Made by a program: the position numbers and the translations under genes. Source: a virus. Taken from it: a stretch of DNA of 64,000 nucleotides. The stretch covers positions 1-64,000 of the IMG/VR virus record IMGVR_UViG_3300024344_003209. One strand, 5' to 3'. Positions 16,150 through 41,150 of the stretch are shown one piece after another (within the stretch, counting starts at the first letter, position 1; every line of letters starts with the position of its first letter). Below the pieces are notes generated by a model. The model saw only the letters and a list, made by a program, of their open reading frames with translations. It did not search any database and had not been told where the DNA came from.

Positions 16150-16178
16150 AGGATAACGCAAACTTTAAATTATGTCAA
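16150..16178 (-). promoter_or_regulatory. Sigma-70-type promoter for the split polymerase operon
   Basis: Minus-strand TTGACA (16173-16178), a 17-base spacer and TATCCT (16150-16155). The start codon at 16137 is 12 bases past the -10 box, giving a leader of about 5 bases. Confidence 0.7.
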
Positions 16179-20644: not shown

Positions 20645-20655
20645 ATTACACTATA
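20645..20655 (-). promoter_or_regulatory. TAGTGTAAT element upstream of the acidic-tail protein
   Basis: Minus-strand TATAGTGTAAT, 7 bases before the ATG at 20637. It overlaps the stop codon of the nuclease-like gene upstream. Confidence 0.45.
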
Positions 20656-21067
20656 AATCCACTTTAAATTTATTTTTAAAAAAGTCTTTACTCAAAAGGT
20701 CGACTTCATCATAGTTGATTTCTATTAAGTTATAGTCGTTTTGCTCTAACCATTCTAACTTTTTAAAATCTCTGTTAATAGACTTTAGGTAATTTACCCT
20801 AGAATTTGCATGAAAAAACTTATTGAAATTGCCATGTTGAGCACCATTTACTTCAATAGCAATCTTTTTTGTGGCGTTTAGGATATCTACTTTCATTCGA
20901 CTCCCATAAACAGGGAACTCTTCGTAGACAATGCAAGGCTTCCAGTACCTTTTTAAGAATTGTTTTACATCAAATTGAAGCTTTGATCTGCTTTTCCCGT
21001 CCCATTTTATTAAATATTTATTAACACCTTTGTTTTCAAGGCGTCCATATATATTATAGAGTCTCAC
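20651..21067 (-). CDS. Vsr/DUF559-like PD-(D/E)XK endonuclease
   Basis: The 138-residue protein has the core of a small restriction-type fold: Asp in RMKVDILN (about residue 61), IAIEVNGAQHG (about 71-81) with the second acidic residue, and RDFKKLEWLEQNDYNLIEIN near the C-terminus, which matches the DxxK...L...G/N-x-x-L/V-I-x-I pattern of Vsr and DUF559 proteins. It could act as a nicking or junction-resolving enzyme, or as a homing-type nuclease. The first 40 residues are basic and aromatic. It overlaps the basic protein gene upstream by 4 bases. Confidence 0.65.
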   Translation of the reverse strand: MRLYNIYGRLENKGVNKYLIKWDGKSRSKLQFDVKQFLKRYWKPCIVYEEFPVYGSRMKVDILNATKKIAIEVNGAQHGNFNKFFHANSRVNYLKSINRDFKKLEWLEQNDYNLIEINYDEVDLLSKDFFKNKFKVDL

Positions 21068-21330
21068 GACATGACTTGATTTATTTGAGATTCTAGTTTT
21101 TTAATATGAGAGATAAGCTCTGAGTTGCCAGCGTGGTTTCTTTTAGTTCTAAGGAAGCCTCGTTTAATCTCTTGCTTTAATCCTCGGACAATCATGTCTC
21201 GGTTGTCAATGATACCAAGCTTAACGCTTCTAGTCTTTTTAAGCTTTTTTTTCTCAGCCTTCTTTTGTGCGTGTTTTGTTTTCATCTTCTCTTCTCGTTC
21301 GAATGCTCTTAAAAGCTCTATATAATCCAT
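21064..21330 (-). CDS. Small basic protein downstream of a terminated leader RNA
   Basis: The 88-residue protein is lysine- and arginine-rich, with a long helical stretch (EKMKTKHAQKKAEKKKLKK) and a second helix near the C-terminus (ELISHIKKLESQINQVM). It may bind nucleic acid. I recognise no family. Its ATG comes just 3 bases after the U-tract of an intrinsic terminator, so its expression should depend on readthrough of the leader RNA described at 21334-21542. A Vsr-like nuclease gene follows through a 4-base overlap. Confidence 0.55.
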   Translation of the reverse strand: MDYIELLRAFEREEKMKTKHAQKKAEKKKLKKTRSVKLGIIDNRDMIVRGLKQEIKRGFLRTKRNHAGNSELISHIKKLESQINQVMS

Positions 21331-21333
21331 ATT

Positions 21334-21371
21334 AAAAAAAATGGTGGTTGGATTATTTGTTTACCAACACC
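21334..21371 (-). terminator. Intrinsic terminator abutting the 21330 start codon
   Basis: On the minus strand, GGTGTTGG (21364-21371) pairs with CCAACCACC (21343-21351, one bulged C), followed by A and eight T residues. The ATG of the next gene starts 3 bases later. Confidence 0.75.
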
Positions 21372-21542
21372 TTTTCGGTTCCCGAGAAACAAAGTTTCTT
21401 ATCAACCTACTTCGGACTCGCTCACGTTTTTCATCTGCCACTTGGCCGTCTGTACTTCCGCAAGCGCTACGTTACCCCCTTGGGAGGAATTATTCCGTCA
21501 CACCGCCTCACTCCGTCGAGGGAGGAAATTGTTTGCTAATGT
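21334..21542 (-). ncRNA. Structured leader or stand-alone RNA upstream of a small basic gene
   Basis: A minus-strand transcript of about 209 nt is bounded by a clear promoter (TTGACA-17-TATATT) and an intrinsic terminator. It is more GC-rich than its surroundings and has no credible reading frame. Hairpins visible from the 5' end are: CCUCCCUC/GAGUGAGG with loop GACG (one mismatch); GGAA/UUCC; a GUA...UAC arm around CUUGCGGAAG; GCC/GGC; and AGAAAC/GUUUCU. It ends in the terminator stem. It matches no riboswitch, RNase P, tmRNA or 6S pattern known to me. It could be an independent small RNA or an attenuator. Confidence 0.65.
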
Positions 21543-21548
21543 TTTAAT

Positions 21549-21577
21549 AATATAACATGAGCTTAACTATATGTCAA
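21549..21577 (-). promoter_or_regulatory. Sigma-70-type promoter for the 21.4-kb leader RNA
   Basis: Minus-strand TTGACA (21572-21577), 17 bases and TATATT (21549-21554). The TGA stop of the recA-like gene is contained in the -35 hexamer. The predicted start point is near 21542. Confidence 0.75.
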
Positions 21578-22707
21578 GCTAAAGTTTCCTTAAATTTATT
21601 ATAAAAGTAATTAGTCGCTTCTGAATTTTCTTCTAAATAATTAAATAAACCATTCTTTCCTTGGAACTTATCTGGAATATCTATCTTATTTTCTTCTAAC
21701 TCTTTTACTACTTCTTCTGACACTTTAATCCAAGCTCCTGACTTTGTAACAAATTCATACTGAATTAAAAGATCAACAATTTCTAATTCTTTCCAAATAC
21801 TAGTGCCTCCTACTCTGCCTCTTTTAATCGGGTAAGGGATAACAACATTAGTCTTTTCATTTGGAGACTTTTTTACGGTAACTTTAGACCATTGACCAAG
21901 AATCTTATTTGAGACTCTATCTGGAGCCTTCTTATCGTCTTCTAAAATATAATCTTTTTTGTAGCGAGGCTCAAATTCCAATATCCAATTAGCAAAGTGA
22001 AGCAAAGCATTTCCTCCTGTTGCTGAGGTTTGCCTAATAGGGGCTTTAGAATAAGGGTCAAGTTGGATATCTGCTCTAACTTGACTAATGAATATAGCCA
22101 TATGACCTCTTTTAGTAAGGGCAGTGGCGACTTTTTTCATGAAGACAGAGCTTATAGTAGCCCCTCCTGCGACCTTAGTGGCATCGTGAAGGGCTTTTTC
22201 GCTATCACCCTTGGTCTGGAGGCCATCAACTGAATCAAGTATAAAAAGATACTTTTTTCCTTCTTCATTAAACTGTATAAGCATCTTCATCATATCGAAG
22301 ACAGACTCGTAGATATTGCTTTCATAAATAAAGCAGGTTCCGTCCTTCCAGCTTTCTGGCTCCCTAGTGTCAACAAAATTAACCCCGCACCTATCTCTCA
22401 TCTCTGGGCTTAGTCTTCCTTCGCATTTAAAGTATACAGCCCTAGAATTAGGCATCTGGAGAAAATGTTTAGCAACTTCGAAGGCCTCAGAAGTTTTACC
22501 TCCTTCGTTGATGCCGCAAAAACGATGCAAACCGGGACCTAATCCTCCGCCTGTCTCAATATCTAAAGTAAGAGAGCCTGTCGAAACTTTATACTCAATA
22601 GTTTCCTCATAATTATAGTGGTCCTCTTTATGTGTCTTCAGGAACGAAGACAATTGTTCCGCTGAAGTTACTATTCCCTCTTTATTTACTTTCTTCTTTA
22701 CTGCCAT
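21574..22707 (-). CDS. recA: RecA-like recombinase
   Basis: The 377-residue protein is a phage RecA/UvsX-type ATPase that forms filaments on ssDNA for strand exchange. The Walker A loop is GINEGGKTS (residues 65-73), slightly unlike the usual GPESSGKT; Walker B lies in KKYLFILDSVDGL; and FISQVRADI plus the glycine-containing SATGGNALLHFAN are the L1/L2-like DNA-binding region. The front MAVKKKVNKEGIVTSAEQL is short, as in phage proteins. It would work with the annealing candidate and nucleases in this window. An extended -10 promoter lies within the upstream gene. Confidence 0.9.
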   Translation of the reverse strand: MAVKKKVNKEGIVTSAEQLSSFLKTHKEDHYNYEETIEYKVSTGSLTLDIETGGGLGPGLHRFCGINEGGKTSEAFEVAKHFLQMPNSRAVYFKCEGRLSPEMRDRCGVNFVDTREPESWKDGTCFIYESNIYESVFDMMKMLIQFNEEGKKYLFILDSVDGLQTKGDSEKALHDATKVAGGATISSVFMKKVATALTKRGHMAIFISQVRADIQLDPYSKAPIRQTSATGGNALLHFANWILEFEPRYKKDYILEDDKKAPDRVSNKILGQWSKVTVKKSPNEKTNVVIPYPIKRGRVGGTSIWKELEIVDLLIQYEFVTKSGAWIKVSEEVVKELEENKIDIPDKFQGKNGLFNYLEENSEATNYFYNKFKETLA

Positions 22708-23050
22708 CTCTTAAAAATTCTAATAATGTTTTAGGTTTTGCCTTATTTATTTTAGGGTCTTCTCCTATCTTCTCTTTATCTAGTATAGCATGTTCTTTTC
22801 TGAAGTCAAGCTTAGAAAGCTCTTTCTGTTTATTTAGATAATTTTTAAATTTTTCAGTGCGAAACTGAGCGAGGCTCTCTATTTTGATGCTATCAAAGGA
22901 AAGATCTTTGAATATTTGCTCTCCGTGATCTTTTATTAAAGACTTAGCAATTACTATTTCTTTTGGCCAGTTTACTTTTTCTGGTTCTTGGCAAAACTTC
23001 CAAACCAGATATTGGTAGATATTATTGATCTTCTTGCGCTTGCTTTGCAT
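22682..23050 (-). CDS. Hypothetical charged helical protein
   Basis: The 122-residue protein is not recognised. It is rich in Lys and Glu, probably helical, with an opening MQSKRKKINNIYQYLVWKFC and a C-terminus NKAKPKTLLEFLRDGSKEE. Its 3' end overlaps recA by 26 bases and its 5' end overlaps the GDP-mannose dehydratase gene by 29 bases. It contains the recA promoter. A role alongside RecA is possible from position only. Confidence 0.5.
   Translation of the reverse strand: MQSKRKKINNIYQYLVWKFCQEPEKVNWPKEIVIAKSLIKDHGEQIFKDLSFDSIKIESLAQFRTEKFKNYLNKQKELSKLDFRKEHAILDKEKIGEDPKINKAKPKTLLEFLRDGSKEESK
22782..22809 (-). promoter_or_regulatory. Extended -10 promoter for recA
   Basis: Minus-strand TTGACT (22804-22809), 16 bases and TATACT (22782-22787), with TGC before the -10 box (extended -10). 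It lies within the preceding gene and would give a leader of about 70 bases. Confidence 0.6.
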
Positions 23051-24077
23051 AAATAGCTAAGTCACATTTTACCATGTCCTCGATCATTTTGTCAAACGAA
23101 ATCTCTCGTTTCCAGCCAAGTTCTTCTTCTGCGTTTGAAGCGTCTCCGTGAAGTAGGTCAACTTCTGCAGGCCTAAACCATTTCTCGCTAATTTCTGCAA
23201 GAACAGTGTTTTCTTGAAATAACCTAAACTTTGCGTCTAGACCTTCTCCGCTCCAAAGACCGGGAATGCCTGCTGAGCCAAAAGCTTTAGTTACAAAGTC
23301 TTTTACAGAATTAGTCTCTCCGCTTGCTAAAACGTAGTCTTTAGGCTTGTCTTGATTGAGCATAAGCCATATGCCTCTCATAAAATCTCGGCTATCGCTC
23401 CAATCTCTTCTTGAATCTATATTGCCTAGTTTTAGTGTTTCAAAGGTTTGTTTATTTTTAACTTTGTGGTAAATCTCGGCAACCTTTTTAGTTATTTTTC
23501 TAGTGACAAACTCAGAACCTCTTCTTGGCCCTTCGTGGTTAAATAAGATTGAATGGACAGCGTAAAGATCATAAGATTCTCGGTATACTTTTACTAAATG
23601 CCTAGCCGCAGCTTTGGAAGCTCCGTATGGACTCCTAGGTTTGATTGGATGTTTAATATCTTGAGGGCTATAATCAACATCTCCTAGTTCTTCAGATGAA
23701 CCTGCGCTGTAAAACCTACAGTCTGGTTTATGTTTTCTGATTGCTTCTAAGCACCTAATGACACCAGAGGCATTAATATCAAAAACACTCAGGGGAGTGT
23801 CCCAACTAACGCCAACGTAAGAATTAGCTCCAAAGTTAATAAAATAGTCGGGTTGTATTTTGATGACTAGATCATTTATGCTTGAAGAATCTGTAAGTTC
23901 TCCGTCAACTAAAGTAAACCTATCGTGAGCAATAAATGATTTAATGTTAGTAAGGTTAGGTGTTCCTGAGCGGCGCTGCATTCCATACACTTTATTATCT
24001 GTGTTATTTAAAAGGTACTCAGCCATATTAGAGCCATCTTGACCTAAAACGCCAGTTATTAAAACTTTCTTACTCAT
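23022..24077 (-). CDS. gmd: GDP-mannose 4,6-dehydratase
   Basis: The 351-residue protein is an extended short-chain dehydrogenase of the Gmd type, which turns GDP-mannose into GDP-4-keto-6-deoxymannose, the precursor of fucose, rhamnose or perosamine sugars. Visible are the NAD(P)-binding GVLGQDG (residues 9-15), the catalytic YGASK (151-155), FNHEGPRRGSEFVTRKI and the late RPAEVDLLHGD. Length is normal. No partner reductase or epimerase for the GDP sugar was recognised, so the host may supply the next step. It has its own promoter 8 bases before the ATG and lies directly after the nonulosonic acid genes. Confidence 0.95.
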   Translation of the reverse strand: MSKKVLITGVLGQDGSNMAEYLLNNTDNKVYGMQRRSGTPNLTNIKSFIAHDRFTLVDGELTDSSSINDLVIKIQPDYFINFGANSYVGVSWDTPLSVFDINASGVIRCLEAIRKHKPDCRFYSAGSSEELGDVDYSPQDIKHPIKPRSPYGASKAAARHLVKVYRESYDLYAVHSILFNHEGPRRGSEFVTRKITKKVAEIYHKVKNKQTFETLKLGNIDSRRDWSDSRDFMRGIWLMLNQDKPKDYVLASGETNSVKDFVTKAFGSAGIPGLWSGEGLDAKFRLFQENTVLAEISEKWFRPAEVDLLHGDASNAEEELGWKREISFDKMIEDMVKCDLAIYAKQAQEDQ

Positions 24078-24085
24078 GTCAATAC

Positions 24086-24114
24086 ATTATACGCTAAACC
24101 GAAAAATAAGTCAA
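24086..24114 (-). promoter_or_regulatory. Sigma-70-type promoter for gmd
   Basis: Minus-strand TTGACT (24109-24114), 17 bases and TATAAT (24086-24091), with only 8 bases to the ATG at 24077. The mRNA should be leaderless or nearly so. Confidence 0.75.
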
Positions 24115-24116
24115 CA

Positions 24117-24797
24117 CTAATTAAATATTGGGTAAAGTTTTTCTGCTACTTTAAACTGCCATTCGTAATCAATATCGAAGGCCTCTAGCTCTTCCATTAC
24201 AAAAAGCTCAGGCTCTGGCGGTGAATTAGAGTCCATCCAATAGCCTTGCGAAATGAAATCCATTCTGCTAGCATAAAGACAATGAGCTGCTTCGAAAACT
24301 GGCTCGGCAATCTTAGTATTCATTATTGTGTGGCTTTTCCAGTCTGTAATAGACTTGCCTTCTTTATTCCAATAATAAGTTTTCTTCTCAAATACGGCAA
24401 ATCCTCCATCTTTCTCTGAATTTAAAAAACTTTTAATAAAAGAGTCTATAGTTTCTATCTTTAGAAGAGGGTTGCACGCACTAACTAGCACAACATATTT
24501 AAAAGGTAAATCTTTATGCCATTCATAAATTTCTGATAAAGGGTCTCCCTCTGACTTTGCTGAAGTCTCACTTCTGTTGTATACATTTATGCCATGTTCA
24601 TTCGCTATGTTTTTAAGTTCTGGCTCGTAAGCAGATAAAAAGATATTGTCGATCGAGATCGCCTTTGACTTTTTTAACTTATTAAATAATATGCTGACTA
24701 AAGAAGAGCCACAAAAGGGCTTTATCATTTTTTTTGGCAACCTTTGTGAGCCAAGCCTAGCTTGTACTACTAAGCAAACTTCATTTATATTTTTCAT
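24117..24797 (-). CDS. Acylneuraminate-type cytidylyltransferase (NeuA/PseF-like)
   Basis: The 226-residue protein matches enzymes that join CMP to nonulosonic acids. The nucleotide-binding opening is VQARLGSQRLPKKMIKPFCG (residues 11-30), and ACNPLLKIETID gives the next conserved stretch. It would activate the sugar acid made by the NeuB-like synthases two or more genes upstream, giving the donor for glycosyltransferases. Related enzymes act on pseudaminic, legionaminic or sialic acid; the sequence does not show which. It overlaps the 58-codon gene upstream by 4 bases. Confidence 0.8.
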   Translation of the reverse strand: MKNINEVCLVVQARLGSQRLPKKMIKPFCGSSLVSILFNKLKKSKAISIDNIFLSAYEPELKNIANEHGINVYNRSETSAKSEGDPLSEIYEWHKDLPFKYVVLVSACNPLLKIETIDSFIKSFLNSEKDGGFAVFEKKTYYWNKEGKSITDWKSHTIMNTKIAEPVFEAAHCLYASRMDFISQGYWMDSNSPPEPELFVMEELEAFDIDYEWQFKVAEKLYPIFN

Positions 24798-24970
24798 TTT
24801 AATTTTCCTAAGAGCTCAGATATTTCGTTATCTGATTTATTTATTCTCTTGATAAGGTTTTTTGTTTCTTCTGGAGCATGTTTTAGCGCAAGACGGAGTA
24901 TGTCCATCCAGTTTACATTATTTTTGCTCCTTACTTCCTGTATTGCATCTATGACTTCTAAATCTTTCAT
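24794..24970 (-). CDS. 58-residue protein between GNAT and cytidylyltransferase genes
   Basis: A 58-codon frame starts at the ATG at 24970 and ends with TGA overlapping the cytidylyltransferase ATG (ATGA). Its start overlaps the acetyltransferase stop by 4 bases. The protein reads as a compact helical unit: KDLEVIDAIQEVRSKNN, then NWMDILRLALKHAPEE and an acidic-basic C-terminal helix. As I recall, similar short NWMDILRLA proteins accompany cytidylyltransferases in other surface-sugar loci, so it may be an accessory of that enzyme; this should be checked. The double coupling makes it very likely real. Confidence 0.7.
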   Translation of the reverse strand: MKDLEVIDAIQEVRSKNNVNWMDILRLALKHAPEETKNLIKRINKSDNEISELLGKLK

Positions 24971-25407
24971 TTTTTTAAAATATAATACAAAAGGTCTTCG
25001 CTTTTTTTAGTGCGTAATTCAAAGCCGCTTCTTTCTGCTGCTTTTATTGAGGCTATATTGTCTTTTTTTATAGCACATAGAAACTCACCTTCCTTATTGT
25101 GAATAAAAAGCCTTATCATTAACTCTCCTAGTTTTTTACCTTGCTCGTTAGGACTGATGATGTAAGACAACTCGTAGCTATTTTTGCCTATAATATCTTG
25201 TCTTATTGTCCCTGCTGGATTGTTATGTACTAAAAATAAATATTGTTTTTTATTTTCGTCTTTAATTAAATTTTTTATGTACTGTTTGTGATTGTCTTCT
25301 TTTATTTCTTCTGTACTTATAGAGCGTTGTCTGACTGCGGGATCGTTCCTCCATTTTAAAAGTATTTCCCAGTCTTCAAAAACTATTGGTTTAAAGGCAA
25401 AATTCAT
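24967..25407 (-). CDS. GNAT acetyltransferase (PseH/WecD-like)
   Basis: The 146-residue protein is a GNAT-fold acetyltransferase: an opening that includes LLKWRNDPAVRQ, a central strand YELSYIISPNEQGKKLG where the QGKKLG loop would bind the acetyl-CoA pyrophosphate, and a closing AIKKDNIASIKAAERSGF. The WRND start is typical of the acetyltransferases that modify amino groups on UDP-sugars, such as PseH in the pseudaminic acid route. Its place among aminotransferase, synthase and cytidylyltransferase genes fits that step. It starts 14 bases after the NeuB-like gene. Confidence 0.75.
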   Translation of the reverse strand: MNFAFKPIVFEDWEILLKWRNDPAVRQRSISTEEIKEDNHKQYIKNLIKDENKKQYLFLVHNNPAGTIRQDIIGKNSYELSYIISPNEQGKKLGELMIRLFIHNKEGEFLCAIKKDNIASIKAAERSGFELRTKKSEDLLYYILKK

Positions 25408-25421
25408 CTTACTTTTCGTTA

Positions 25422-26429
25422 TTAAAATCTTTCTGTGTAGATTTCCAAGCCAGATATTGCTTGGTCTACATCAAAGTCCGCTGAAACTTTTTGTCCTATT
25501 GCAAATTCGTAGTTTATAGCGGGTATGTCATATTCAAAACAGGGTCTTTTTGTTGTTATGTTATCTTCTGACAAAATATCTCCTTTTTTTATTTGTTTTT
25601 TAGCTACGATAGATCTCATAGCAAACCTAAATTTCTCTTCAGATTTAGTAAAATGAGAATCCTTGACGCCGCATGCTTCTTCCGTAAACCTAATATACTC
25701 AACCATTTTTTGTAACTCGTCTGCCTCTAATGCAAATTTATGATCTGGCCCGATTAGGTTTCTATCTAAAGTAAAATGTTTCTCTATTACTTGAGCGCCA
25801 AGAGCAACAGCTAGTGATGGAGTTAGTATGGAGGTTGAATGATCAGATAAGCCGACCTTGCAATCGAACCTTAAACTTTTACTTGAAAACATAGACTTCA
25901 AATTTAAATCTGAAGTAGGAGTTGGGTAAGCGTTGTTGCAGTGTAGGAGAGTAAGCTCATTAGAGTGCTTCTCGCATATATCAAATATCTTACCTAAATA
26001 GTTAGCCGGAAAACCTATCCCTAGTGATATAACTAAGGGTAATTTAGAAGAAGCTACCATCTCGACGAATCTAAAATCTGTTGATTCAAAACCGGAAATT
26101 TTCAATCTATTAACACCTATGCCGACTAACTCTTCTACAGCCTTCTCGTCAAAAGGGGTAGACATAAATTCTATACCTTTGCCATCACAATATGACTTAA
26201 GCTGAGGTTGCCACTCTCTTGGCATTTCTATTCCTTTAATGAGGTTGTTTATGTCTTTGTAACCAGCAAAATCTGGTGTGTTTTTTCTGTATAGAGTGTC
26301 AGAAGAATAAGTCTGGAACTTTACAGCGTCACAACCAGAGACCACAGCTAAATCAACTAGCTCTAAGGCTTGTTTAAACTTTCTGTCGTGGTTGGCTCCT
26401 GCCTCAGCTATGATAAAAGTCTTATTCAT
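25422..26429 (-). CDS. neuB: NeuB/PseI-type nonulosonic acid synthase with SAF domain
   Basis: The 335-residue protein condenses phosphoenolpyruvate with an N-acetylated hexose to give a nine-carbon acid. The TIM-barrel start is FIIAEAGANHD, with CDAVKFQTY, HCNNAYPTP and DHSTSI further on, and EKHFTLDRNLIGPDHKFAL as a signature of the family. The last 60 residues (from about 275, SIVAKKQIKKGDILSEDN) form the antifreeze-like SAF domain normal for NeuB. A shorter NeuB-like protein is encoded at 30661-31491. It overlaps the aminotransferase by 8 bases. Confidence 0.9.
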   Translation of the reverse strand: MNKTFIIAEAGANHDRKFKQALELVDLAVVSGCDAVKFQTYSSDTLYRKNTPDFAGYKDINNLIKGIEMPREWQPQLKSYCDGKGIEFMSTPFDEKAVEELVGIGVNRLKISGFESTDFRFVEMVASSKLPLVISLGIGFPANYLGKIFDICEKHSNELTLLHCNNAYPTPTSDLNLKSMFSSKSLRFDCKVGLSDHSTSILTPSLAVALGAQVIEKHFTLDRNLIGPDHKFALEADELQKMVEYIRFTEEACGVKDSHFTKSEEKFRFAMRSIVAKKQIKKGDILSEDNITTKRPCFEYDIPAINYEFAIGQKVSADFDVDQAISGLEIYTERF

Positions 26430-27504
26430 TTATTATCTTTATTATTTTATCTAAATCTTGTTTAGTTAAATTTTGATGAATGGGTAGATTGATTACTCTG
26501 TCTTCTAGGGACTCTGAGTTTTCAAGACTAACATTAAGGCATTTATCTTTGTAGTATTTAGTTTTGTGCAAAAGCGGATAATGAAAAGATGCTGCTGCCC
26601 CTTTATTAATAAGCTTACGTCTTAGCTCGGTTGAAGATAACTGCGATTTTAAAATGAGAGTGCATAGGTAGTAAGATGAATTTTTGTCATGCTTGGTAAA
26701 GTAGCCTATGTTTTTTAATTCAGATTTTAAATATTCATAGTTACTTTTCCTTATATTAATATTTTTTTGAACGCTTTCCATCTGCCCTAAGCCTATAACA
26801 GCATTTATATTATTCATATAAAAATTAAAACCATCTCCTACTATATCGTAAGAAAGATCCGTATTTTTTCTACCAAAATTTCTGTAGTCTCTTACGTAAG
26901 AGTCTGCTTCGCTGTCATTTGTAGCTATCAAGCCTCCATTAGCCATTGTAAGTGGTTTTATTGGGTGGAAAGAAAAGAATGCATAGTCATAATCTATTCT
27001 AGGATTCAAGCAATGAGCAGAGTCTATAACTATAATATCATTCCAATTAGTATCTTTGACTCTTTCTATTAAGCCGGATATATCTGAAATACCTCCGTAT
27101 AAAACAGGCATAAAAACAGATTTATTAAAAGTTGCGTTATGTTGCCTCTCTAAATGAAATCGTCTTATATCCCAATAAGAATCAAAATTTACTGACAGAT
27201 TTTCATCTACATCTAAAAAATAAACATTATGACCATTAGCCATTGCTGCCCAAGCTGGAGAAGTAAATCCTATAGATGGAGTGTACACATCGCAAGACCC
27301 ATGCTTGCTGTAAAGATAAGAGAATAAGCAAAAGGCGGCGGAAGAAGCAGAATTTATACCTATATTATAGTCTTTTTTGGAAAAAGATTTGAACGATTGC
27401 TCGAACTTCGACACTTCTGAGCCAAAACCTAAAGATCCACCTCTAAGTAAATCAGAGACAGACTTTATTGTGCTTTCTTCTATTGTGGCTTCGAAGCAGT
27501 TCAT
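26422..27504 (-). CDS. DegT/DnrJ/EryC1 aminotransferase (PseC-like)
   Basis: The 360-residue protein is a sugar aminotransferase of the DegT family. The PLP-binding lysine is Lys183 in FSFHPIKPLTMANGG, and the cofactor aspartate is Asp161 in IDSAHCLN. It would transfer an amino group to the 4-keto sugar made by the PseB-like dehydratase two genes upstream, as PseC does for UDP-4-keto-6-deoxy-AltNAc. The front MNCFEATIEESTIKSV is a little shorter than usual. It overlaps the metallo-beta-lactamase-fold gene by 4 bases. Confidence 0.9.
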   Translation of the reverse strand: MNCFEATIEESTIKSVSDLLRGGSLGFGSEVSKFEQSFKSFSKKDYNIGINSASSAAFCLFSYLYSKHGSCDVYTPSIGFTSPAWAAMANGHNVYFLDVDENLSVNFDSYWDIRRFHLERQHNATFNKSVFMPVLYGGISDISGLIERVKDTNWNDIIVIDSAHCLNPRIDYDYAFFSFHPIKPLTMANGGLIATNDSEADSYVRDYRNFGRKNTDLSYDIVGDGFNFYMNNINAVIGLGQMESVQKNINIRKSNYEYLKSELKNIGYFTKHDKNSSYYLCTLILKSQLSSTELRRKLINKGAAASFHYPLLHKTKYYKDKCLNVSLENSESLEDRVINLPIHQNLTKQDLDKIIKIINE

Positions 27505-32154: not shown

Positions 32155-32183
32155 ATTATAGCATCAACTTAAAAATTTGTCAA
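32155..32183 (-). promoter_or_regulatory. Sigma-70-type promoter for the GT42-like/NeuB2 unit
   Basis: Minus-strand TTGACA (32178-32183), 17 bases and TATAAT (32155-32160), 10 bases before the ATG at 32144. Consensus boxes make this one of the strongest promoters here. Confidence 0.8.
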
Positions 32184-36441: not shown

Positions 36442-36470
36442 AGTATATTACAAACCTAAACAGTTGTCAA
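36442..36470 (-). promoter_or_regulatory. Sigma-70-type promoter for the DUF736-like/GT4 unit
   Basis: Minus-strand TTGACA (36465-36470), 17 bases and TATACT (36442-36447), 9 bases before the ATG at 36432. It overlaps the 3' end of the sigma factor gene. Confidence 0.75.
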
Positions 36471-37447: not shown

Positions 37448-37476
37448 ATTATAAAATTAGCTTGACTTTTTGTCAA
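37448..37476 (-). promoter_or_regulatory. Sigma-70-type promoter for the sigma factor leader RNA
   Basis: Minus-strand TTGACA (37471-37476), 17 bases and TATAAT (37448-37453). It overlaps the plus-strand promoter: both -35 boxes form the palindrome CTTGAC-TTTTT-GTCAAG (37461-37477). Confidence 0.75.
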
Positions 37477-41121: not shown

Positions 41122-41150
41122 TTGACATTTAGTTAAGTTCATCTTATAAT
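41122..41150 (+). promoter_or_regulatory. Consensus sigma-70 promoter for the putative SSB gene
   Basis: TTGACA (41122-41127), 17 bases and TATAAT (41145-41150), both perfect. The ATG at 41159 is 8 bases past the -10 box, so the mRNA is predicted to be leaderless. Confidence 0.85.

What the first reader, a model, noticed from the sequence alone, without database searches (positions are those of the whole stretch)
21331..21577. A complete RNA gene: promoter, hairpin-rich RNA and terminator ending 3 bases before a start codon
TTGACA-17-TATATT, about 209 nt of hairpin-rich and relatively GC-rich sequence, and a stem followed by eight T residues define a discrete RNA that matches no class I know. 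Its terminator abuts the ATG of a basic protein, so it may be both a stand-alone RNA and an attenuator.
Basis: partly seen in the sequence, partly recalled or inferred. Interest (0 to 1): 0.78.

Follow-up and report, generated by a model that had tools for sequence, protein, structure and literature searches.

The report
Divergent manA RNA with protein partner
This phage stretch encodes a real folded RNA, an unrecognised offshoot of the marine-phage "manA RNA" family whose function is still unknown, and in every related virus found it travels with the gene for a small basic protein, which suggests a two-part RNA-protein module rather than a simple gene switch.

Summary
In detail: on the minus strand there is TTGACA-17-TATATT (with TG), a GC-rich folded RNA, a hairpin plus T8, then AAT-ATG. 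The claim that it matches no known class does not hold. It is a full-length but divergent match to Rfam manA RNA (RF01745; 44.1 bits, E=4.7e-8 over the 64 kb window). The score is below Rfam's 55.2-bit cut-off, so gathering-level annotation misses it. I found the same RNA in 12 distinct relatives (13 members with the window), and its stems show compensatory changes. Across manA RNAs the long-range pseudoknot covaries clearly. All 13 RNAs are followed by a gene of one basic-protein family, usually directly and in two cases after an intervening ORF. A protein-only search recovered two further lineages, both carrying the RNA. The RNA-protein pair sits at several genomic sites, and the recA-endonuclease site is empty in relatives. 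Upstream lies either its own promoter or, in seven members, another structured RNA. Elsewhere manA RNAs lie between tRNA genes. Most likely it is an autonomous, terminator-ended phage RNA that works with its co-inherited basic protein; operon attenuation is the main rival. New variant of a known family; transcription and function are untested.

The parts
21549..21577 (-). sigma-70-type promoter TTGACA-17-TATATT with TG two bases before the -10; overlaps the recA stop codon
   Evidence: (2 in window, 0.03 expected); same type just upstream of the RNA in L129, L131, L134, L136
21334..21525 (-). manA-family structured RNA (RF01745 match 21523-21337)
   Evidence: 44.1 bits, E=4.7e-8 over the window, model 1-192 complete; same in relatives; 11 pairs with compensatory changes
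21506..21525 (-). P1 hairpin CCTCCCTC-GACG-GAGTGAGG (one C.U mismatch in the window, perfect in L123, L127, L136)
   Evidence: both-sided changes at columns 6/25, 8/23, 9/22, 10/21
21501..21504 (-). 5' strand GGUG of the manA pseudoknot; partner CACC 21346-21343
   Evidence: the two strands covary across manA RNAs
21469..21501 (-). conserved GUGAC-GAAUAA motif and P2 hairpin (CCUCC/GGGGG), then UAACGU
   Evidence: the AC/GU pair becomes GC/GC in L316 and L317
21419..21466 (-). P3 domain, arms CGCUUGCG 21466-21459 and CGUGAGCG 21426-21419
   Evidence: fold; covariation at 70/113; sequences of L123, L127 and L131 keep the pairs with changed bases
21334..21371 (-). terminal manA hairpin extended into a terminator-like stem GGUGUUGG/CCAACCACC followed by A and U8
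   Evidence: columns 165-193, UU/AA to CG/CG changes at 169/188 and 170/187; 7-8 U in the 9 nt at 21341-21333 and the matching positions of all relatives
21064..21330 (-). gene of the small basic helical protein (88 aa; conserved core begins at the internal Met of MKTKH) linked to the RNA
   Evidence: AlphaFold two-helix model; no Pfam family
21574..22707 (-). recA/UvsX-like gene directly upstream (context)
   Evidence: PF00154 E=6.4e-11; phrog_97
20651..21067 (-). homing-endonuclease-like gene directly downstream of the cassette; follows recA directly in relatives that lack the cassette (L008, L009, L015)
   Evidence: phrog_559 and phrog_9084

Best explanation
It is a phage RNA gene: a divergent clade of manA RNA that forms a two-gene cassette with a small basic, helical protein. 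Shown: homology to manA, covarying stems and pseudoknot, linkage to the basic-protein gene in every relative found, different genomic sites, and a conserved promoter type upstream of the RNA or its array. Inferred: it is transcribed from the promoter overlapping the recA stop (start near 21542). It folds into P1, P2, P3 and the terminal hairpin, closed by the GGUG/CACC pseudoknot. Transcription usually ends at the U-run, giving an RNA of about 205-210 nt. Read-through or upstream transcription makes the basic protein, which most likely binds the RNA so that the two act as a small ribonucleoprotein during infection.
For: Family: full-length RF01745 match in the window and in relatives at E 1e-9 to 4e-14 per genome; no hit in 14 control genomes or in the relatives without the RNA. 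Structure: 11 pairs with both-sided changes; pseudoknot types GGGAG/CUCCC, GGGUG/CACCC, GGAUG/CAUCC, CAUAG/CUAUG, AGGAG/CUCCU, AUGUG/CACAU and the clade's GGUG/CACC. Linkage: all RNAs have the basic-protein gene downstream, and a search by protein alone returned 11 contigs, all with the RNA upstream, including three contigs (two lineages) not known from the RNA pattern. Cassette: recA site filled in the window and L002-L005, empty in L006-L010, L015, L016; in G006 the RNA lies at 48.3 kb, about 30 kb from recA. RNA-gene context: promoters in 5 members, another structured RNA directly upstream in 7; other manA RNAs lie directly between tRNAs.
Against: No transcript data. All clade scores are below Rfam's cut-off (38-49 bits against 55.2), and the middle of the RNA aligns poorly. 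RNA-protein binding is not shown: the protein has no recognised RNA-binding fold, and its model is just two helices (pTM 0.49). The position directly before a start codon, with a U-run, fits cis-regulation at least as well. L123 has no promoter between recA and the RNA. The sample is small (13 distinct RNAs, some closely related).
Confidence: 0.5

Rival explanations
1. Cis-acting attenuator or riboswitch-like leader of the basic-protein gene. CACC pairs either with the upstream GGUG (manA pseudoknot) or with the local GGUG (terminator stem). A ligand, or the basic protein itself as autoregulator, would shift the balance between read-through and termination.
For: The local second GGUG is present in 11/11 clade RNAs tested but its equivalent in only 2/115 other manA RNAs, so the two pairings are mutually exclusive by sequence. 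U-rich tail in all members. The first ORF starts 12-17 nt after the pseudoknot strand in all 11 of the original clade set, and is the basic protein in 10 of them. Rfam and Weinberg 2010 class manA as cis-regulatory (PMC2864571).
Against: An unrelated ORF separates the RNA from the basic gene in L133 and L310/L320. The hairpin is weak in the window (-7.2 kcal/mol). CACC and both GGUG copies never vary inside the clade, so neither pairing is tested by covariation there. manA RNAs elsewhere precede tRNAs or terminators rather than one kind of gene.
Confidence: 0.33
2. Type III toxin-antitoxin-like module: promoter, RNA antitoxin, attenuating terminator, small toxin gene.
For: The same order of parts (promoter, structured RNA with pseudoknot, terminator-like hairpin, small ORF) and strict RNA-protein linkage with site-hopping. 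Type III architecture is from general knowledge.
Against: Single non-repeated RNA, whereas type III antitoxins are short tandem repeats. The protein is a basic two-helix protein with no similarity to any Pfam family or to any solved structure at E below 0.05. The RNA family also occurs without this protein.
Confidence: 0.07
3. 3'-end element of the upstream gene: a structured terminator or stabiliser that ends the recA transcript.
For: In L123 it follows the recA stop codon directly with no promoter. In cyanophages P-SSM2, P-SSM4 and P-SSM7 the manA match begins within about 25 nt of the preceding gene's stop codon.
Against: The upstream gene varies while the downstream basic gene is constant. 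The clade often has its own promoter between gene and RNA.
Confidence: 0.07
4. Not a structured RNA: chance hairpins in a GC-rich spacer.
For: Folding energy no better than shuffles (z = -0.22).
Against: Full-length Rfam match, covariation and conservation in relatives.
Confidence: 0.02

Closest known systems
manA RNA (Rfam RF01745)
   Same: P1 hairpin with GACG loop, GUGAC-GAAUAA motif, P2 with UAAnGU, P3, terminal hairpin with UA...AAU loop, pseudoknot; aligned over the whole model
   Different: Scores below the gathering cut-off; much of the model's middle is gapped or mismatched in the alignment; pseudoknot of 4 pairs plus a conserved C.A mismatch; own promoter in several members; a second local GGUG that makes a terminator-like stem; linked to a basic-protein gene
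wcaG RNA (Rfam RF01761)
   Same: Another marine-phage RNA reported with manA; both occur close together in cyanophage S-CREM1
   Different: Different fold; no wcaG hit in the window
Type III toxin-antitoxin loci (general knowledge)
   Same: Order promoter, structured RNA, terminator-like hairpin, small protein gene
   Different: No RNA repeats, no toxin homology, RNA belongs to another family
Cyanophage tRNA/ncRNA arrays (S-CREM1)
   Same: manA RNA as one unit of an RNA array
   Different: The window has no tRNA; its relatives have other structured RNAs upstream

Membership tests
manA RNA RF01745 | Full-length covariance-model match | tested here: met
   44.1 bits, E=4.7e-8 in 64 kb, positions 1-192; same for all relatives
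manA RNA RF01745 | Score above Rfam gathering cut-off (55.2 bits) | tested here: not met
   44.1 in the window, 38-49 in the clade. This is a curation threshold rather than a structural feature, but it is why standard annotation misses the clade
manA RNA RF01745 | P1 hairpin, GUGAC-GAAUAA motif, P2, terminal hairpin | tested here: met
manA RNA RF01745 | Pseudoknot between the segment before GUGAC and the 3' end | tested here: met
   Position conserved, 4 of 5 pairs; covaries across the family, invariant within the clade
manA RNA RF01745 | Internal GUGGUGC and ACCA elements of the multibranch region | tested here: inconclusive
   Much of that stretch is gapped or mismatched in the cmscan alignment
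manA RNA RF01745 | Location upstream of a gene (putative 5' UTR) | tested here: met
   Upstream of the basic-protein gene; not exclusive in the family
manA RNA RF01745 | Ligand binding or cis-regulation | not testable with these tools
   Not demonstrated for any manA RNA in the papers read
Type III toxin-antitoxin | Tandem repeats in the RNA | tested here: not met
   Single unit in all relatives
Type III toxin-antitoxin | Homology of the protein to a known toxin | tested here: not met
   No Pfam family; best PHROG E=0.12; no solved structure below E=0.05. The PADLOC library was not searched

The most novel reading that the evidence does not exclude
manA RNAs are not riboswitches but autonomous phage RNAs, and this clade has recruited a dedicated basic protein to make a mobile two-part RNA-protein cassette that inserts between phage genes and acts on the host or on phage replication.
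Probability: 0.35. Interest if true: 0.8.

Novelty: new variant of a known kind. Interest (0 to 1): 0.55.

Why it matters
manA RNA has been a riboswitch candidate without a function since 2010. This clade offers what the family lacked: a strict protein partner, a compact promoter-RNA-terminator unit, and a clear either/or pairing to test. The survey also shows that many manA RNAs lie directly next to tRNA genes or before terminators, and that the pseudoknot drawn with a question mark in 2010 covaries clearly. Both points bear on whether 'cis-regulatory' is the right label.

Tried and rejected
(1) Rfam at gathering threshold: nothing; only the E-value mode revealed manA. (2) MFE folding as evidence: z = -0.22, uninformative. 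(3) blastn of the RNA against INPHARED phages: no match. (4) The clade pattern in genome contigs: none, so no host or prophage copy is known. (5) Protein families of the basic protein: none; the AlphaFold model is two helices with low pTM, so I did not run a fold search. (6) I did not build my own covariance model; Rfam's model sufficed, and the pseudoknot was counted directly from anchored strands. That count is confined to the position next to the terminal hairpin, but it picks the best of a few registers; one search uses one fixed register. Its regular expression also caught non-manA sequences (L261, L269). (7) 'Terminator abuts the start codon' as proof of attenuation: rejected, since an ORF intervenes in L133 and L310/L320, and L123 and L127 start only at MKTKH.

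Full report
What is there. On the minus strand of this 99-kb virus record, TTGACA-17-TATATT (21577-21549) overlaps the stop codon of a recA/UvsX-like gene. A GC-rich segment follows, ending in GGTGTTGG-12 nt-CCAACCACC, A and T8, then AAT-ATG of an 88-codon basic ORF. TTGACA-N14-TGnTAnnnT occurs twice in the window against 0.03 expected.

What class it is. At gathering threshold Rfam finds nothing in the window. In E-value mode the segment 21523-21337 matches RF01745, manA RNA, over the whole model (1-192) at 44.1 bits, E=4.7e-8 for 64 kb, below the 55.2-bit cut-off. The same full-length match is found in 10 other contigs at 38-49 bits and in three more contigs (two lineages, L316 and L317 being alike) found through the protein. 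No hit arises in 14 control genomes or in seven contigs of recA relatives that lack the RNA. So it is a divergent clade of manA RNA, not an unknown class.

Structure. On 11 clade RNAs (87% mean column identity) RNAalifold predicts 52 pairs, 11 with both-sided changes, in P1, P2, P3, a small hairpin inside P3, the hairpin before the terminal one, and the terminal hairpin. The MFE of the window RNA alone is not better than shuffles. Across about 127 distinct manA RNAs in fetched contigs the pseudoknot strands take at least six fully paired forms (GGGAG/CUCCC, GGGUG/CACCC, GGAUG/CAUCC, CAUAG/CUAUG, AGGAG/CUCCU, AUGUG/CACAU) plus the clade's GGUG/CACC. Counting each combination once, and including the two false matches, 74% of positions pair against 53% when partners are permuted (maximum 71% in 2000 permutations). 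Weinberg et al. 2010 marked this pseudoknot with a question mark (PMC2864571).

The 3' end. In the clade the pseudoknot strand CACC has a second possible partner, a GGUG just upstream of the terminal hairpin. It is present in 11/11 clade RNAs, while the equivalent is present in 2/115 others. Using it gives a terminator-like stem (-7.2 kcal/mol in the window's subclade, -11.1 in the other) followed by 7-8 U in 9 nt. The two pairings exclude each other. This is a plausible switch, but neither pairing varies inside the clade, so sequence cannot say which forms. U-rich tails also occur in many other manA RNAs (51/115 with at least 6 T in 10), so the U-run alone is not specific to the clade.

Linkage to a protein. 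All 11 clade RNAs are followed by a gene of one basic-protein family (invariant KT-H...KA-K...TR), ten directly, one (L133) after a 65-codon ORF. A search with the protein alignment alone returned 11 contigs, all with the RNA upstream, three of them previously unseen; in L310/L320 an unrelated ORF lies between. The pair occupies several sites: between recA and a homing-endonuclease-like gene in the window, L002, L004 and L005 (in L003 after a further gene), absent at that site in L006-L010, L015 and L016, and in G006 at 48.3 kb, about 30 kb from recA.

Upstream context. Five members have TTGACA-17-TAnnnT just before the RNA (window, L129, L131, L134, L136). Seven have instead another structured RNA ending about 10 nt before it, in some of these with such a promoter 280-400 nt upstream. 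L123 has neither: the RNA follows the recA stop directly.

What manA RNAs do elsewhere. In Synechococcus phage S-CREM1 manA lies exactly between tRNA-Leu and tRNA-Asn. Of 116 non-clade manA-like sequences in fetched contigs, 20 have a same-strand tRNA within 150 nt, 12 with a tRNA starting within 30 nt downstream, and L277, L278 and L282 have tRNAs about 5 nt away on both sides. Fourteen of 103 have a strict intrinsic terminator within 130 nt downstream, against 2 in control stretches. Others precede gp32, talC or purL. This fits an autonomous RNA better than a regulator of one pathway, but does not exclude cis action. These contigs were found with patterns, so the fractions are not unbiased.

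Mechanism. I favour an autonomous RNA ended by its own hairpin that works with the co-inherited basic protein (0.5), over an attenuator of that protein's operon (0.33). The steps shown are homology, covariation, linkage and change of site. Transcription, termination, binding and biological effect are inferred. The identification as manA-related is much firmer (about 0.95) than the mechanism.

Novelty. The family is known, its function is not. The clade, its protein partner, its terminator-compatible 3' end and its site-hopping were not in the papers I could search.

Noticed in passing
L127:1400-1490, L320:1405-1492, L318 (minus strand, about 1695-1780), L137:1395-1495; longer variants in L130, L133, L135: A second, unclassified structured RNA of about 90-110 nt (GAGUUGACGGAGUUAAAUACCCC...UUUACUGCUGGUGGUGCGGCAGCAACUC) ends about 10 nt before the manA-clade RNA. 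Outer stem GAGUUG/CAACUC becomes AGGUUG/CAACCU in L318, and inner stems also show compensatory changes; no Rfam match at E<0.5.
   Followed up: partly
L085:10806-10856, L088:2121-2171 (-), L135:1934-1984 (-), L137:1299-1349, L313:2510-2560; second half only at L316/L317:2463: A further conserved stretch upstream of that RNA (AGTCTGGCAGGGCGGACTTAAAAGATTAGGGTAGGAATACAATGCTAATCA), possibly a third RNA of the same array.
   Followed up: no
window 16150-16178, 21549-21577, 32155-32183, 36442-36470, 37448-37476 (all -), 41122-41150 (+): Six TTGACA-17-TAnnnT promoters (1.1 expected) and most share a spacer motif like TTAAGTT, which suggests a phage-specific promoter or operator type.
   Followed up: no
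window 23022-27504 (-): Sugar-pathway cluster in the phage: GDP-mannose 4,6-dehydratase, cytidylyltransferase, GNAT acetyltransferase, NeuB, DegT aminotransferase, reminiscent of nonulosonic-acid synthesis; the dehydratase lies upstream of recA in the relatives too.
   Followed up: partly
L277, L278, L282, L110 and other cyanophage-like loci: manA RNA sits about 2-5 nt after one tRNA and 5-13 nt before another, as if it were a unit of the tRNA transcript.
   Followed up: partly
L148, L150, L152, L159, L172, L177 and others, just 3' of manA: A recurrent hairpin AGACCTAAGATGCAACT...AGTGGGGCAGATGGTCTTTTT follows many cyanophage manA RNAs; probably a terminator with a conserved loop, unclassified here.
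   Followed up: no
window, minus-strand ORFs: Only 9 of 37 long ATG ORFs have a Shine-Dalgarno core upstream, so SD-less starts, as for the basic protein, look common in this phage (crude count).
   Followed up: no
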